A stretch of 44,209 nt of DNA. Origin: a virus. Shown in pieces: positions 338-37,158 of the stretch (positions are counted from its first letter, which is position 1; each line of letters opens with the position of its first letter). The notes beneath the pieces are model-generated. The model made no database searches. It was not told where the DNA came from and saw nothing but the letters and a program-made list of their open reading frames with translations. The translations under genes and the position numbers were made by a program. Where the stretch lies: the IMG/VR virus record IMGVR_UViG_3300019458_000054, positions 1-44,209 of that record, one strand, 5' to 3'.

Positions 338-1237
338 TTAAGAACCTTGTGAACCAAAAACACCACGCCAGTTACGACAACCAAAGCTATAACGCTCTAA
401 CGTTCTCACAGTGATATTGTCAGTAATGATATCTGTAATGAAATCAATATCGAGATTTTCACGCTGATAGTATCTAAAAGCATCACAGTCAGTTAAAATA
501 AACCAAGCATTACCATTGGTTATAAATTGGTTAACAATATAACCACCTGGCATGTACTTATCATGGACAATTGCATTGATATCATTATTTGCCGTACCAG
601 TTTGATATTGTGATTTAAAGATACGTGCAGCATTGAAAGCCTGCTTTTGCGGTACTAATGCCTTGATAGCTCTGGTATTGATCTGCAATCCAGCAAGGTT
701 ATACCATGACCGGATTATTGAAATCGCATCTTCAACCGCTGATTCTGTAAAACCAACACCATTACTAAATGTATTAGAAAGTACTCCAGTTGCAATTGGA
801 TGCGTACTACACAATGGCTGTCCATCACTTACCGTAGAATTAACATTAAAGGCATTATTGAAAATATACATTGCATTAATGTTCTTTAAAGTTTCTAAGC
901 TATTACGCAATTGTAATGATTGCTGCGGAAATTGTGCTTGATATAAGTTATCCAAAATTGCTGCACGCGTAATTGGAAAAGAAGTAGAATAGTATTGATG
1001 CACAAAGGAAGTTGTATAACCTTGTTGCATAAAACTTTGTGAAGTTGGCGCGCCATCAGCCTTTAACTGAGCAATCCCCAAACCTTGCATTTCAACTTCA
1101 TATTCAACTGCTTTTTCTGAATGTAAAACCTTATATACATCCTTCCATAAGGCTGGATATGTATTCCAATCCCCAAAAACATCCGCTAAACCTGGGCGTA
1201 AAAGTGAGGGGATCGATGTCCTATTAATTAATGCCAT
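338..1237 (-). CDS. Major capsid protein (Mu-F/HK97-fold type)
   Basis: This 299-residue protein is the likely major head subunit. Its middle has the block DGQPLCSTHPIATGVLSNT, which resembles the 'GxPLFSxxH' segment of Mu-like and related HK97-fold capsid proteins. This is followed by ALVPQKQAFNAARIFKS and a C-terminal aromatic-rich region. The N-terminal stretch (PSLLRPGLADVFG) is also typical of capsid proteins in this group. It sits directly downstream of the probable decoration gene and scaffold, the usual head-gene order. Length is in the normal range. The assignment rests on remembered motifs and context, not on a search. Folding may depend on the phage GroES-like protein encoded in the same cluster. 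Confidence 0.8.
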   Translation of the reverse strand: MALINRTSIPSLLRPGLADVFGDWNTYPALWKDVYKVLHSEKAVEYEVEMQGLGIAQLKADGAPTSQSFMQQGYTTSFVHQYYSTSFPITRAAILDNLYQAQFPQQSLQLRNSLETLKNINAMYIFNNAFNVNSTVSDGQPLCSTHPIATGVLSNTFSNGVGFTESAVEDAISIIRSWYNLAGLQINTRAIKALVPQKQAFNAARIFKSQYQTGTANNDINAIVHDKYMPGGYIVNQFITNGNAWFILTDCDAFRYYQRENLDIDFITDIITDNITVRTLERYSFGCRNWRGVFGSQGS

Positions 1238-1248
1238 GACTTATCCTC

Positions 1249-1935
1249 CTATATTCTAGCTACAGCACGACGAACGTACTGATGATTTTGAATTAATACC
1301 TCTACGTTATTGAAAGGCGCTCCTGCAGTTGCAGGATTAGGCGGTGATGGAATTATTCGCAAACAAATTACATTCTTGGTATCCGTACCTGCACCTCTTT
1401 GAGCATTATTAATTGCTACAAGTGATTGACCGGTATTCGTATTACCTTGAACAATATCAGCGGTTTGAGGAATTACATAATTAAAAGCCGCTCCTACTTG
1501 CTTTTGTTCCACACCAGTTACAGTACCTAAATTACATTGCACATCAAAAATTGTATTAGGATCATCAACAACATCAGCAACAGCTGGAATCTTGTTTAAA
1601 GTAACTGTACCAGCTGGCCAAAATGGTCGACCAGGAGATGCAGGATCAATTGGATTAGTTGCAGTAGGCGTTACAAAAGAACACCCATTAAAAATACCTA
1701 CTGTTGGCACATCAACAAACACATGTGTACCTATCGCATCGTAGATACTAATTAGATAACCTTGATCATCAGGGTTTGTGGAGGCAGTTCCAGCAATCAT
1801 TACTGGATCACCCTTGAAAATATTATTTGCATAACCAGAACGAATCAGATATGGATTTGTCTGACTATTCCATGCAGCTGCCCCTAAAGATTTAGTTGGC
1901 TTTAAACCCCATGGTAAGTTTTGTCCGTAAGACAT
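1249..1935 (-). CDS. Probable capsid decoration/head structural protein
   Basis: A 228-residue protein with a beta-rich, Pro/Gly/Asn-rich composition. It begins MSYGQNLPWGLKP, a start I associate with head-decoration or cement-like proteins found just upstream of phage capsid genes. Residues 30-120 alternate hydrophobic and polar residues as in a beta-sandwich, and no catalytic motif is visible. The gene is separated from the capsid gene by 11 bases and is preceded by an unusually long, structured 367-base leader. An alternative is a minor capsid protein of another type. Confidence 0.6.
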   Translation of the reverse strand: MSYGQNLPWGLKPTKSLGAAAWNSQTNPYLIRSGYANNIFKGDPVMIAGTASTNPDDQGYLISIYDAIGTHVFVDVPTVGIFNGCSFVTPTATNPIDPASPGRPFWPAGTVTLNKIPAVADVVDDPNTIFDVQCNLGTVTGVEQKQVGAAFNYVIPQTADIVQGNTNTGQSLVAINNAQRGAGTDTKNVICLRIIPSPPNPATAGAPFNNVEVLIQNHQYVRRAVARI

Positions 1936-1976
1936 AAGCGTACTCCTTGGTAAAATTCACAAAATATAACTATTGG

Positions 1977-2037
1977 GGAATTTAAAGGGTACGCCACATC
2001 GTTGCCGGTAAGGCGCTTCAATACTTTATGAAATTCC
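1977..2037 (-). ncRNA. Structured leader element, copy A
   Basis: The same core as copy B (1990-2015) is enclosed by an outer stem of different sequence: GGAATTT 1977-1983 with AAATTCC 2031-2037, extended by AAAG 1984-1987 with CTTT 2024-2027. The inner stem is CGCC 1992-1995 with GGCG 2012-2015. Conserved core with replaced but still complementary outer stems is the pattern of a selected RNA structure. It lies about 40 bases upstream of the decoration start codon. Confidence 0.55.
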
Positions 2038-2110
2038 TAATAACATAAAGTCTCGGAGACATGTCATTTCATACTATTTGATCTTACGCATGTCCGATAT
2101 ATCAAAATAG

Positions 2111-2169
2111 GAGAAGTAAAATACGCCACATCGTTGCCGGTAAGACGATCCATAAAGTAAGCACTTCTC
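2111..2169 (-). ncRNA. Structured leader element, copy B
   Basis: A 7-bp outer stem (GAGAAGT 2111-2117 with ACTTCTC 2163-2169) encloses a core (2122-2147) that is 25/26 identical to the core of copy A downstream. An inner 4-bp stem pairs 2124-2127 with 2144-2147. In minus-strand RNA the single core difference makes a U-G pair, while in plus-strand RNA it would be an A-C mismatch. This supports function as minus-strand RNA. Family unknown. Confidence 0.55.
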
Positions 2170-2302
2170 AACTTTACTTTAAGTAGAGATCTAAATTGGG
2201 TAAAGATCTCTAATCAATAATAAACTTATTCTCTATTCTTTATCAAGATCTCTACATAAATAAAATATCATAAATAGCAAAATACCTAAAAATATACATT
2301 TT

Positions 2303-2500
2303 TCAAGTTCGTACATCTAAATTAAGCGCCTCTCCTTTAATAAATTTGGCATTTAATTCTGCTAATTCAATAATCTCTTTAAAAGCTTTAAAACGATTTT
2401 CCGGAGTTTGGCGATCATTCAATTCTCCTGTTTTAAATCCAACTTCATAAGCCATTTTTAATGCTTCAATCCTTACTTGATAATCAATGTCCATGTCCAT
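2303..2500 (-). CDS. Small hypothetical protein in head-gene cluster
   Basis: A 65-residue acidic, mostly helical protein starting MDMDIDYQVRIEALKMAYEVG and ending in a charged helix. The start is the first of two in-frame ATGs. It follows the upstream gene by 3 bases, so it is probably translationally coupled. It is the last gene before the structured capsid leader. I do not recognise it; it may be a minor scaffold or assembly factor, judged by position only. Confidence 0.6.
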   Translation of the reverse strand: MDMDIDYQVRIEALKMAYEVGFKTGELNDRQTPENRFKAFKEIIELAELNAKFIKGEALNLDVRT

Positions 2501-4193: not shown

Positions 4194-4559
4194 TTACTTA
4201 ATAACTTCTAATATTTTTTTAACATCTTCTTCACTATATTTTGCTAAAATATGTGCATCACTTATATAATAAAGTACATATGTTCCAACATATTCTGGAC
4301 TACGTTCAAAATTTGAATAAGCAACCCAATCCCCTACTTCACAATATCTATCTGCAAGATTATCTTTAAAACATGATGGTCCTACTTTTAAAATTAGACC
4401 AATATTTTGACGTCTCATCTGATCTTTAATGACAGAATCTGGTCTAATAATACCACCACTAGTTTTTTCTTCTAATGTAGGAGCTTTTATCAATAGTTGA
4501 TAACCTAAAACTTGTGGATCTATGCCAATTTGGTCTTTACAAAATGAATCTTGCATCAT
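4194..4559 (-). CDS. GroES-like co-chaperonin
   Basis: A 121-residue protein of the Cpn10/GroES family, the lid that works with GroEL in the cytoplasm. After an N-terminal extension of about 12 residues come the GroES landmarks: the mobile-loop region EEKTSGGIIRPDSVIKDQ with the GGII contact, then IGLILKVGPSCFKD and the barrel strand CEVGDWVAYS. It is longer than bacterial GroES (about 97) and near T4 gp31 size. It lies in the head-assembly cluster and overlaps the upstream small gene by one base. By analogy with T4 gp31 it may replace host GroES so that GroEL can fold the capsid protein; that role is inferred. Confidence 0.85.
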   Translation of the reverse strand: MMQDSFCKDQIGIDPQVLGYQLLIKAPTLEEKTSGGIIRPDSVIKDQMRRQNIGLILKVGPSCFKDNLADRYCEVGDWVAYSNFERSPEYVGTYVLYYISDAHILAKYSEEDVKKILEVIK

Positions 4560-21185: not shown

Positions 21186-21253
21186 AATCTATTCCAATTT
21201 CTAAGCACTCCACTTACCATGCTATCACAATTTTTTGCAAAGTGCGTTAATTT

Positions 21254-21300
21254 AAAAGTTAAAACTTCACTCGGTTTTTAGGATACAAGTTTTAACTTTT
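21254..21300. terminator. 14-bp inverted repeat, terminator-like
   Basis: AAAAGTTAAAACTT (21254-21267) and AAGTTTTAACTTTT (21287-21300) pair perfectly, with a 19-base loop. The 3' arm runs into TTTTTT on the plus strand and the complement does the same on the minus strand, so it could stop transcription either way. It would insulate the outer-membrane protein gene from the replication operon. The stem is AT-rich and therefore weak for its length. Confidence 0.45.
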
Positions 21301-21371
21301 TTCTGGTTGACTAAATAGAATTTTCTAGATGGCTTGACTCAAATACCTATACTTTGCTATAAAAGTAATTG

Positions 21372-21403
21372 CGAAGTATGGTTTATTTATAATGCATACT
21401 TCG
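21372..21403. repeat. 9-bp inverted repeat
   Basis: CGAAGTATG (21372-21380) pairs with CATACTTCG (21395-21403) around a 14-base AT-rich spacer. No T-run follows, so an operator or structured RNA is more likely than a terminator. Confidence 0.45.
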
Positions 21404-21464
21404 ATTATAAGGGCGTTAGATTCCGGCTTTTACAGCTGATTTAAGGGCCCACTAAGCTTACAGG

Positions 21465-21507
21465 CCCCTTTCGAGCTCTTGTTGTTGTGAACCAAGTTCG
21501 AAAGGGG
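21465..21507. repeat. 10-bp inverted repeat downstream of the replication module
   Basis: CCCCTTTCGA (21465-21474) and TCGAAAGGGG (21498-21507) form a GC-rich stem around 23 bases. On the minus strand it lies about 125 bases past the end of the DnaA-like gene. No U-tract follows, so if it is a terminator it is not a classic one. Confidence 0.45.
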
Positions 21508-21631
21508 ATTAAGTTGTTCGGAAATTCCGACATACTGGCAGAAATCCTAGATCATCTTTGTAAACCTATTTTTTAAGTACTTGTGGTGGTTTTTATGTGG
21601 TCTCTGGTATATCCCTAGCCGACATGGGTAT

Positions 21632-34920: not shown

Positions 34921-37158
34921 TCAAATACTTGCTGGATTAATGATTTGCCAACCCACACCATTAGTATCAGCTACATTACTTGATGTAATTGTAATGGAAG
35001 TGTTAGCTATTAAACTTGTATATAAAAATCCCGCATTTGCAGCATTAAAAGCAGGTGTATTATTATATGTAACAAGTATAACTGACGATCCAGTCACAGC
35101 CGTTGTCGCAATTGTAACAGTACCTGCTACTAACGTTGATAAACCAGCAGTAGGAGCAGCTCCTATACTATTAGCAACAACAATTGCCCCTGTGTGTTTA
35201 ATAGTTCCACTTCTACAACTAGGTTGTCCTAATGTACTTACATAAATAATTGCATCTCCTGCAACACCTGGATTTCCAGGCGTTGCTATACCTGGAATAC
35301 GAATTGCTGGCGTAAAATGAGCACCAGCTGGCCCTAAATGTAATCCCATAGTTGGGGTAGGATTATTTAGGCCGATATTAACATCATTTCCTAAATTCAT
35401 AACAAAACTTGCACTAACTTGCGTACCTACGCCAATTGCAGTTGAACTATTTAAATTAATAGCAGTTGCATTTGTCAAAGAACCTAAGAATGTACAATTA
35501 ATATTATTAGTTTGTGTTAATCCCGCATTAACACCCAGTCCTACATTACCAATACCAGTCGTATTAGCATTTAATGCCTGGTATCCTATACCAACATTAC
35601 TATCACCACTAGTATTGCTACTTAAAGTAGCTGTACCCAGTCCTACATTATTATTACCAGTCGTGTTACCAGCTAAATTACCTACACCCACTGCTATATT
35701 GTTAGCACCAGTAGTATTACTGAATAGATTACCATTACCATAAGCAATATTATTACCATTACCAGTAGCAGTTGTATTATAATTATTAACACCAACTACA
35801 ACACTAGGATTAGTAGTAACCGATAAATTAGAACTGCGACCTAAAGATACCCCTAAATTACCTACAATGTTATCTTGTAATTTTGAAATCCAACCTATAG
35901 TTTGAGGCCCAGTTCCGTTAACTACAAGAACTTGCCCTATCGTACCATTAGGCAAATTGACATCTATTGTTCCTGCAGTTGTGATAGGACTACCAGTAAT
36001 TGTTAAGCCTGTGTTACTTGCAATACCTACAGAAGTTACAGTACCTCCACCACCACCAGTTGGGATATCAAACATAGATTCAGAGTCACTATAAAAAATC
36101 CTACGTTCCCCTTGTGGAATTACATAAATATTACCTATAGGAGTACCAGGGGTACCTAATTGTACAGATAAACTAAATGCACCTGTAGTATCATTAAAAA
36201 TAAACCATTCTCCATCAACAGTTGGAAAAAATACCGTAATATTTCCTGTTAAAACTCCTGTATATTGTTGAATATCATTACTTGCCTCAGAGGCAGTTAA
36301 AATAATATCATTATTACCTGCAACAGATTTATCAAGAACGGTAATATTACTTAAGTTTTGTTGACCATAACCTAAAGTAAACCATTTAGTTTGTACGGTG
36401 CCAATTAGGACTGCATACCCAGGAGTAGCAACAATCAAAGTTTGCCCAGGATTTATTGAAAGACTGACTTGTCCTTGAATACCATCCATTACTATAGAGG
36501 ATAAAGTAAGTGCACCTGTTCCCGCATTATTTATCGATACATAATAAAAGGGAGGCACTTGACCTACTGGTAATGGCGAAGGTGTTGGTGATACAGCAGG
36601 TAAAAATATAGAAGATGTACCGCCAGTCCACACCAACATACTAGCATAATCTGTAATAGCTATATTGTAATTTGATGGTATCGCAGTATTAACGTTTATT
36701 TGCGTATTAAGTCTACTTTGATTTATAGGTGGCAAAATGTAATCATTTAAACCATAACCTACTAAACTAGCTGCCGTTGCTGAAGAACTACCTGCACCAA
36801 ATTGTAAAAAATGCCATGTTCCTGCTGCTGTAGAATTATCAGTTAAAATAAAATACCAAGCCGTACCAGCGACAATTGTATTAATAACACCACCAGCAAA
36901 ATCTAAGACATTAAATGACTCTGCACCAATATTACTGATGATAAAGTTTTGACCTACACTTACTTGTCTTGCATCAGGAATAGAAATAGAATTAGCAGGC
37001 GCAATGTTATCTGCAATGTCCATATAAGCTGCAACTATATTAACAGAATCTTGATAGGCAGTTGGCCAAAATAAAGTAAGATCACCGAGTAAACTATATA
37101 GTTTATATTCTACATAGGCTGTTTGAACTGGGCCAAATTGATTTGTAAAAACAGTCAT
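34921..37158 (-). CDS. Tail fibre with adhesin-head-like repeats (fibre 1)
   Basis: A 745-residue protein. The first 350 residues are beta-sandwich-like, with an LTGNITVFFPTVDGEWFIFN module. Then a linker (TVTSVGIASNTGLTITGSPI) leads to a run of NTTGxxNxAxGxxxL repeats (residues 460-570, for example NLFSNTTGANNIAVGVGNL), the left-handed roll repeats of YadA-type adhesins and many phage fibres. The C-terminal 130 residues form a distinct tip domain. It shares linker and repeats with the 822-residue protein, so the two are paralogues. It probably binds the host surface. Confidence 0.8.
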   Translation of the reverse strand: MTVFTNQFGPVQTAYVEYKLYSLLGDLTLFWPTAYQDSVNIVAAYMDIADNIAPANSISIPDARQVSVGQNFIISNIGAESFNVLDFAGGVINTIVAGTAWYFILTDNSTAAGTWHFLQFGAGSSSATAASLVGYGLNDYILPPINQSRLNTQINVNTAIPSNYNIAITDYASMLVWTGGTSSIFLPAVSPTPSPLPVGQVPPFYYVSINNAGTGALTLSSIVMDGIQGQVSLSINPGQTLIVATPGYAVLIGTVQTKWFTLGYGQQNLSNITVLDKSVAGNNDIILTASEASNDIQQYTGVLTGNITVFFPTVDGEWFIFNDTTGAFSLSVQLGTPGTPIGNIYVIPQGERRIFYSDSESMFDIPTGGGGGTVTSVGIASNTGLTITGSPITTAGTIDVNLPNGTIGQVLVVNGTGPQTIGWISKLQDNIVGNLGVSLGRSSNLSVTTNPSVVVGVNNYNTTATGNGNNIAYGNGNLFSNTTGANNIAVGVGNLAGNTTGNNNVGLGTATLSSNTSGDSNVGIGYQALNANTTGIGNVGLGVNAGLTQTNNINCTFLGSLTNATAINLNSSTAIGVGTQVSASFVMNLGNDVNIGLNNPTPTMGLHLGPAGAHFTPAIRIPGIATPGNPGVAGDAIIYVSTLGQPSCRSGTIKHTGAIVVANSIGAAPTAGLSTLVAGTVTIATTAVTGSSVILVTYNNTPAFNAANAGFLYTSLIANTSITITSSNVADTNGVGWQIINPASI

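What the first reader, a model, noticed from the sequence alone, without database searches (positions are those of the whole stretch)
1977..2169. Two covarying structured elements in the capsid leader
Two copies of a 26-base core (25/26 identical) are each enclosed by a perfect 7-bp stem whose sequence is entirely different between copies (GGAATTT/AAATTCC against GAGAAGT/ACTTCTC). The one core difference keeps pairing only as minus-strand RNA (U-G), the transcribed strand. This is strong two-copy covariation for a leader RNA before the decoration and capsid genes. Possible roles are capsid-level autoregulation, a self-cleaving or processing element, or binding of a coat protein. I compared the core in memory with hammerhead, twister and pistol and saw no match.
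Basis: seen in the sequence. Interest (0 to 1): 0.8.

Follow-up and report, generated by a model that had tools for sequence, protein, structure and literature searches.

The report
Tandem pseudoknots in phage capsid leader
Just ahead of the genes for a phage's shell proteins, the messenger RNA appears to fold into two matching knotted structures whose sequences differ but whose base pairing is preserved in relatives, which points to an unrecognised RNA control element for phage shell production; its function is still untested.

Summary
In detail: two copies of a 26-nt core (25/26 identical), each flanked by a perfect but unrelated 7-bp pairing. The reading changes. Each '7-bp outer stem' is the second helix of a pseudoknot. 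Anchored on B, hairpin A plus pseudoknot recurs in all five units of three related phages with unrelated sequences (joint shuffle p 0.001-0.009 each). B covaries inside: GCGCC/GGCGU to GCGUC/GACGU, G[GCAA]C to A[GCAA]U to A[GUAA]U.

More distant relatives (capsid 47-75% identity) mostly carry similar leaders, often tandem, after a sigma70-like promoter, with lineage-specific cores. Outgroups have short spacers. Rfam has no match. The core changes between lineages but is the same in both copies of a genome, which argues against a ribozyme or metabolite riboswitch.

Best mechanism (inferred, about 40%): a translational switch for the decoration-capsid operon. In the window, B's 3' strand plus the pseudoknot strand can instead pair with the Shine-Dalgarno region (-17.1 kcal/mol; 8 and 1 of 1000 shuffles). 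This is not seen in every lineage. An RNA-decay barrier is the main rival.

The parts
2241..2246 (-). -35-like hexamer TTGATA of the inferred leader promoter (18-nt spacer)
   Evidence: 10 of 12 consensus matches; consensus only: 4 sites found in the region against 2.7 expected; promoter-like sites read by eye at the same place in L003, L005, L012-L014, L027, L061
2217..2222 (-). -10-like hexamer TATTAT; inferred transcript start near 2210, leader about 275 nt
   Evidence: no transcript data
2185..2211 (-). hairpin AGAGAUCU/AGAUCUCU at the inferred 5' end of the transcript
   Evidence: (minimum-energy fold), coordinates; L003 has a different hairpin at the same place
2153..2181 (-). unit 1 hairpin A: UAAAGUAA[AGUUGAGAAGUGC]UUACUUUA
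2163..2169 (-). unit 1 pseudoknot 5' strand GAGAAGU (inside the loop of hairpin A)
   Evidence: 2 of 2000 shuffles reach the joint score of hairpin A plus pseudoknot
2124..2147 (-). unit 1 hairpin B: CGUC[UUAC CG GCAA CG AUGU]GGCG, GNRA-type cap
2111..2117 (-). unit 1 pseudoknot 3' strand ACUUCUC
2058..2095 (-). spacer hairpin GGACAUG..CAUGUC between the units; in L003 it is GGCCAUG..CAUGGC (compensatory change)
2023..2051 (-). unit 2 hairpin A: ACUUUAUG[UUAUUAGGAAUUU]CAUAAAGU
2031..2037 (-). unit 2 pseudoknot 5' strand GGAAUUU (inside the loop of hairpin A)
   Evidence: 3 of 2000 shuffles reach the joint score
1991..2016 (-). unit 2 hairpin B: GCGCC[UUAC CG GCAA CG AUGU]GGCGU
1977..1983 (-). 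unit 2 pseudoknot 3' strand AAAUUCC
1978..1995 (-). alternative anti-Shine-Dalgarno strand GGCGUACCCUUUAAAUUC (B 3' strand + linker + pseudoknot 3' strand)
   Evidence: -17.1 kcal/mol; 8 of 1000 and 1 of 1000 shuffles; minimum-energy fold
1938..1958 (-). Shine-Dalgarno side of the alternative helix, GAAUUUUACCAAGGAGUACGC; AAGGAG at 1943-1948
1249..1935 (-). first gene of the operon: 228-aa decoration/cement-like protein
   Evidence: predicted fold weakly like phage capsid-stabilising proteins
338..1237 (-). major head protein gene

Best explanation
The leader of the decoration-capsid messenger carries two tandem three-stemmed pseudoknots: hairpin A, whose loop pairs with a strand downstream of hairpin B. 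I propose that they form a translational switch. When unit 2 folds with its pseudoknot, the strand B3'-linker-PK3' is held away and the Shine-Dalgarno sequence is open. When the pseudoknot is not formed, that strand pairs with the Shine-Dalgarno region and start codon and shuts translation. A lineage-specific, probably phage-encoded RNA-binding protein recognising the two near-identical hairpin-B cores would bias the choice and so set shell-protein output. The structure is supported by sequence comparison (my confidence about 0.85). The switch is computed for some lineages only. The ligand is pure inference.
For: Structure: five units anchored on B alone give joint shuffle p of 2, 3, 6, 18 and 2 in 2000; each loop pairs best with its own downstream strand in 4 of 5 rows, with one tie. 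All three helices keep pairing through different sequences, including U-G allowed only in sense RNA. The tandem score was reached by 0/1000 shuffles in the window, L007, L012, L014, L016 and L023, by 3 in L003 and by 6 in L018. With hairpins chosen without regard to the pseudoknot in 14 lineages, native loop-strand pairing beats swapped pairing (-7.68 against -6.01, permutation p 0.0037). Group D hairpin A1 has three pairs with compensatory changes. The leader follows a sigma70-like promoter and ends about 40 nt before the first shell gene. Switch: anti-SD helix in the window -17.1 kcal/mol (8 and 1 of 1000 shuffles), L007 -14.5 (4 and 1), L014 -13.2 (27 and 3). Holding the pseudoknot strands out raises predicted Shine-Dalgarno accessibility from 0.12 to 0.48 (L014), 0.20 to 0.68 (L012), 0.15 to 0.46 (L007) and 0.00 to 0.46 (L035). 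Ligand: both copies of a genome share the core while orthologous cores differ (L003 copies 29/29 identical, window copies 25/26, but 4-5 of 24 positions differ between window and L003). Precedent: the T4 gene 32 pseudoknot 67 nt upstream of its start codon is an autogenous translational operator (PMC3014915).
Against: The anti-SD alternative is not better than shuffles in L003, L005, L006, L008 or most of group E. In the window, B's 3' strand rather than the pseudoknot strand does most of the anti-SD pairing, so holding only the pseudoknot strands out does not free the site. Energy alone does not single out the leader: five other 300-nt windows of 880 in this genome score as well. Some leaders (L028, L032, L038, L039, L044, L047) show no convincing pseudoknot with the simple scanner, and L005 keeps only one full unit. 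No ligand was identified.
Confidence: 0.4

Rival explanations
1. RNA-decay barrier: the stacked pseudoknots and 5' hairpin at the start of the shell-protein messenger mechanically block 5'-to-3' decay (RNase J type) or 5'-end-dependent endonuclease entry, giving a long-lived mRNA for the most abundant proteins, without any ligand.
For: Structures begin at or near the inferred 5' end in many relatives; tandem copies and a conserved shape with changing sequence are what a mechanical block needs. A tandem-type viral exonuclease-resistant RNA stops bacterial RNase J1 in vitro (PMC5760640).
Against: A purely mechanical block does not need the same 20-nt B core in both copies of a genome. The host and its RNases are unknown. 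The unit lacks the tested fold of flaviviral resistant RNAs.
Confidence: 0.27
2. Processive antiterminator: the nascent leader binds RNA polymerase, as HK022 put RNA does, and lets it read through terminators in the long late operon.
For: It sits directly downstream of the inferred promoter of a long operon. putL and putR are about 70-nt two-stem-loop RNAs placed downstream of phage promoters (PMC9378689).
Against: put needs one element of two stem-loops per transcript, whereas here two to three full units stand in one leader. The element is absent from relatives with the same operon. No terminator test was made.
Confidence: 0.12
3. Riboswitch-like aptamer for a metabolite or ion, in tandem.
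For: The same three-stemmed pseudoknot layout occurs in preQ1-II and fluoride riboswitches (PMC11262651); an SD-sequestering alternative is computed for some lineages.
Against: Binding cores of metabolite riboswitches are conserved across distant lineages; here the core changes completely between lineages. No Rfam match.
Confidence: 0.08
4. Self-cleaving or processing element.
Against: No match to any Rfam ribozyme family; no invariant catalytic core across lineages.
Confidence: 0.04
5. Protein-binding DNA site or chance repeats, with no RNA function.
For: Repeats near promoters are often operators; AGAGATCT palindromes do flank the promoter.
Against: Flank sequences vary freely while pairing is kept, G-U is tolerated only in the sense RNA, and B and A are not DNA palindromes.
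Confidence: 0.04

Closest known systems
T4/T2/RB69 gene 32 leader pseudoknot (autogenous translational operator)
   Same: Pseudoknot in a tailed-phage mRNA leader, some 40-70 nt upstream of the start codon and followed by an A+U-rich stretch (PMC3014915).
   Different: Two-helix H-type, single copy, before an ssDNA-binding protein gene; here three-stemmed, tandem, before shell genes; no repressor known.
Three-stemmed (HL_out) pseudoknots: preQ1-II and fluoride riboswitches, coronavirus frameshift element
   Same: Same topology: hairpin whose loop pairs downstream of an inserted hairpin (PMC11262651).
   Different: No shared sequence, no Rfam match, tandem units, different position and context.
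Tandem exonuclease-resistant RNAs of flaviviruses
   Same: Tandem pseudoknotted elements in viral RNA, possibly mechanical (PMC5760640).
   Different: Different fold and position; resistance untested here.
HK022 put RNA
   Same: Compact structured phage RNA directly after a phage promoter (PMC9378689).
   Different: Two stem-loops without this pseudoknot layout, early operons, polymerase binding shown there and untested here.

Membership tests
Any Rfam 15 family | covariance-model score at or above the gathering cutoff | tested here: not met
   no hit in the window or in eight related loci; only chance-level hits at E 2.1 and 2.2 in the leader
Three-stemmed (HL_out) pseudoknot, as a shape class | hairpin whose loop pairs with a strand beyond an inserted hairpin | tested here: met
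   (computational; no probing)
T4 gene 32-type autogenous pseudoknot operator | pseudoknot in the leader upstream of the ribosome-binding site of the regulated gene | tested here: met
T4 gene 32-type autogenous pseudoknot operator | binding and repression by the product of the same gene | not testable with these tools
   needs protein and RNA; the first gene's product looks like a decoration protein, not an RNA binder
preQ1-II / fluoride riboswitch | conserved ligand-binding residues across the family | tested here: not met
   core differs between lineages; no Rfam match
HK022 put-type antiterminator | read-through of downstream terminators by binding RNA polymerase | not testable with these tools
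   none
Exonuclease-resistant RNA | stops 5'-to-3' exonucleases | not testable with these tools
   none
Self-cleaving ribozyme (hammerhead, HDV-like, pistol, twister, hatchet) | match to a curated ribozyme family | tested here: not met
   recently described phage ribozymes may not all be covered by Rfam

The most novel reading that the evidence does not exclude
A previously undescribed class of phage regulatory RNA: tandem three-stemmed pseudoknots that gate translation of the decoration-capsid operon by exchanging pseudoknot pairing for Shine-Dalgarno pairing. The shape is kept and the recognition core turns over lineage by lineage in step with a phage protein.
Probability: 0.3. Interest if true: 0.8.

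Novelty: new variant of a known kind. Interest (0 to 1): 0.62.

Why it matters
[quoted passage not shown] Here many uncultured podovirus-like phages appear to have pseudoknotted, often tandem leaders on genes that should be among their most highly expressed. If functional, this would be a second and more elaborate system. It would also be a natural set of co-evolving RNA sites from which to learn how DNA phages balance shell proteins.

Tried and rejected
Rfam at gathering and permissive thresholds: nothing. Exact and degenerate core searches in IMG/VR: only the contigs of the three close relatives L003, L004 and L005. Plain nested folding does not reveal the structure and scores modestly (z -1.0 to -1.8 for single sense-strand elements). 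HDV-like reading (GGCAAC..UGGCG resembling J4/2): considered by eye; no P1 partner upstream. A blind choice of hairpin B by energy alone picked the wrong hairpin in several loci; replaced by a joint, pseudoknot-independent choice. Universal anti-SD switch: tested and not supported in every lineage. Genome-collection hits for capsid relatives (38 loci) are about 30-43% identical and do not fix the host. A covariance model of the unit was not built, because Infernal cannot model the pseudoknot and five units are few.

Full report
OBSERVATION. The 26-nt core is 25/26 identical; the 23-nt core has no chance expectation in the window and no further copy. The flanking 7-mers are perfectly complementary and unrelated between copies. 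The window is an IMG/VR virus record. The minus strand encodes, downstream of the elements, a 228-aa protein and the major head protein. Capsid relatives among named phages are phages of Roseobacter, Pelagibacter, cyanobacteria and others at 22-37% identity. The 228-aa product has no family match; its AlphaFold model (pLDDT 78) is weakly similar to capsid-stabilising proteins of Sf11, Pam3 and TW1 (best E 0.03), which suits 'decoration protein' without proving it.

REINTERPRETATION. The order is hairpin A, hairpin B, then the strand that pairs with the loop of A: a three-stemmed pseudoknot. Loop lengths fit an H-type pseudoknot (about 4-6 nt, then 7-8 bp, then 0-1 nt before the 3' arm of A). 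Hairpin B has a 4-5-bp base and a 2-bp cap on a GCAA tetraloop.

RELATIVES. A capsid search gave L003/L004 and L005 (87% capsid identity) and L006-L008, then L012-L014, some 40 more loci and outgroups. L003 has both units in the same place with other sequences: pseudoknots UAGAAAAUU/AAUUUUCUA and UGGAAU/AUUCCA, hairpin A of unit 2 CCUACG/CGUAGG, B GCGUC/GACGU, cap A[GCAA]U. L005 has one full unit (AGAUUUG/CAAAUCU, cap A[GUAA]U). With B as the only anchor, hairpin A plus pseudoknot beats shuffles in all five units (2, 3, 6, 18 and 2 of 2000), and each loop pairs best with its own downstream strand in four of five cases, with one tie. In a structure-fitted tally every helix position pairs in every unit that has it, with two to four pair types at nearly all positions of A and pseudoknot (the fit favours pairing).

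FURTHER OUT. L012-L016 have two units: hairpin A1 with pseudoknot CGAGAC/GUCUCG, and A2 with GAGAAU/AUUCUC. A1 has three pairs with compensatory changes, while both pseudoknots are invariant in these four and so uninformative there. L006/L007 unit 1 has GGAGA/UCUCC. L023 has three units. L018, L027, L035 and L061 fit with other sequences. L040-L044, L047, L107 and L108 have tandem structured repeats that I could not fit convincingly to the same unit. Tandem-score shuffle counts were 0 of 1000 in the window and in six other leaders (L007, L012, L014, L016, L023, L031), but not significant in many group E leaders; the second unit scored in L007, and the L031 units, may be chance. A background scan of the window shows that 5 of 880 other 300-nt windows score as high, so the case rests on recurrence and covariation, not on energy. 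With hairpins chosen without the pseudoknot in 14 lineages, native pairing beats swapped pairing (p 0.0037). Outgroup operons have short spacers before the same gene (mostly under 100 nt).

RNA AND POSITION. A sigma70-like promoter (TTGATA-18-TATTAT) precedes the leader, and similar sites were read by eye in relatives; this is consensus evidence only. Wobble pairs fit the sense strand: window unit 1 B has U-G where the opposite strand would have A-C, and hairpin A2 of group D varies by G-U/U-G.

MECHANISM. Shown: sequence, conservation and complementarity. Computed: in the window the strand GGCGUACCCUUUAAAUUC (B 3' arm, linker, pseudoknot 3' strand) can pair with GAAUUUUACCAAGGAGUACGC across the Shine-Dalgarno site (-17.1 kcal/mol; 8 and 1 of 1000 shuffles); L007 and group D have comparable alternatives, but L003, L005 and most of group E do not. 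Inferred: mutual exclusion controls translation. Also inferred: the two near-identical cores are sites for a lineage-specific ligand, because the copies in one genome agree (window 25/26; L003 29/29) while window and L003 differ at 4-5 of 24 core positions. Gene conversion between copies is an alternative for this concerted pattern.

COMPARISON. No Rfam family matches. The topology is that of preQ1-II and fluoride riboswitches and the coronavirus frameshift element (PMC11262651). The nearest functional precedent is the T4 gene 32 leader pseudoknot (PMC3014915). Exonuclease-resistant RNAs (PMC5760640) and put RNA (PMC9378689) are functional rivals. Functional membership in none of these could be shown. 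I file it as a new variant of phage pseudoknotted leaders, with function open.

Noticed in passing
window 21186-21596: About 400 nt without a long ORF, with strong stems and a TTGACT..TATACT-like promoter; the highest-scoring place of the pseudoknot scan. No Rfam match. Possibly a separate structured RNA.
   Followed up: partly
window 2180-2260: Three AGATCT-centred palindromic sites (AGAGATCT / AGATCTCT) around the leader promoter; could be a DNA operator for late transcription as well as forming the 5' hairpin.
   Followed up: no
window 2303-2500 (-): 65-aa ORF just upstream of the leader; similar small ORFs (..EALKLA.E..FK....RQTPE.R..) lie at the same place in L003 and L005; no Pfam match. 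Candidate regulator.
   Followed up: no
L005:3085-3150: The 5' unit in L005 has lost the B core but keeps an outer pairing (AGAGAUUC/GAAUUUCU): a decaying or replaced unit.
   Followed up: no
L044:1506-1651, L107:609-661, L108:1730-1850: More distant relatives have other tandem structured repeats in the same leader (58 nt at 93% in L044; GGUGG/CCACC versus GCGG/CCGC stems on a shared ACGUAU loop in L107).
   Followed up: partly
window 34921-37158 (-): 745-aa tail protein ending in a K1-lyase C-terminal domain (PF24146, E 1e-11), a depolymerase-type spike.
   Followed up: no
window 4194-4559 (-): Phage-encoded GroES-like co-chaperonin in the head gene cluster, also annotated at this place in related named phages.
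   Followed up: no
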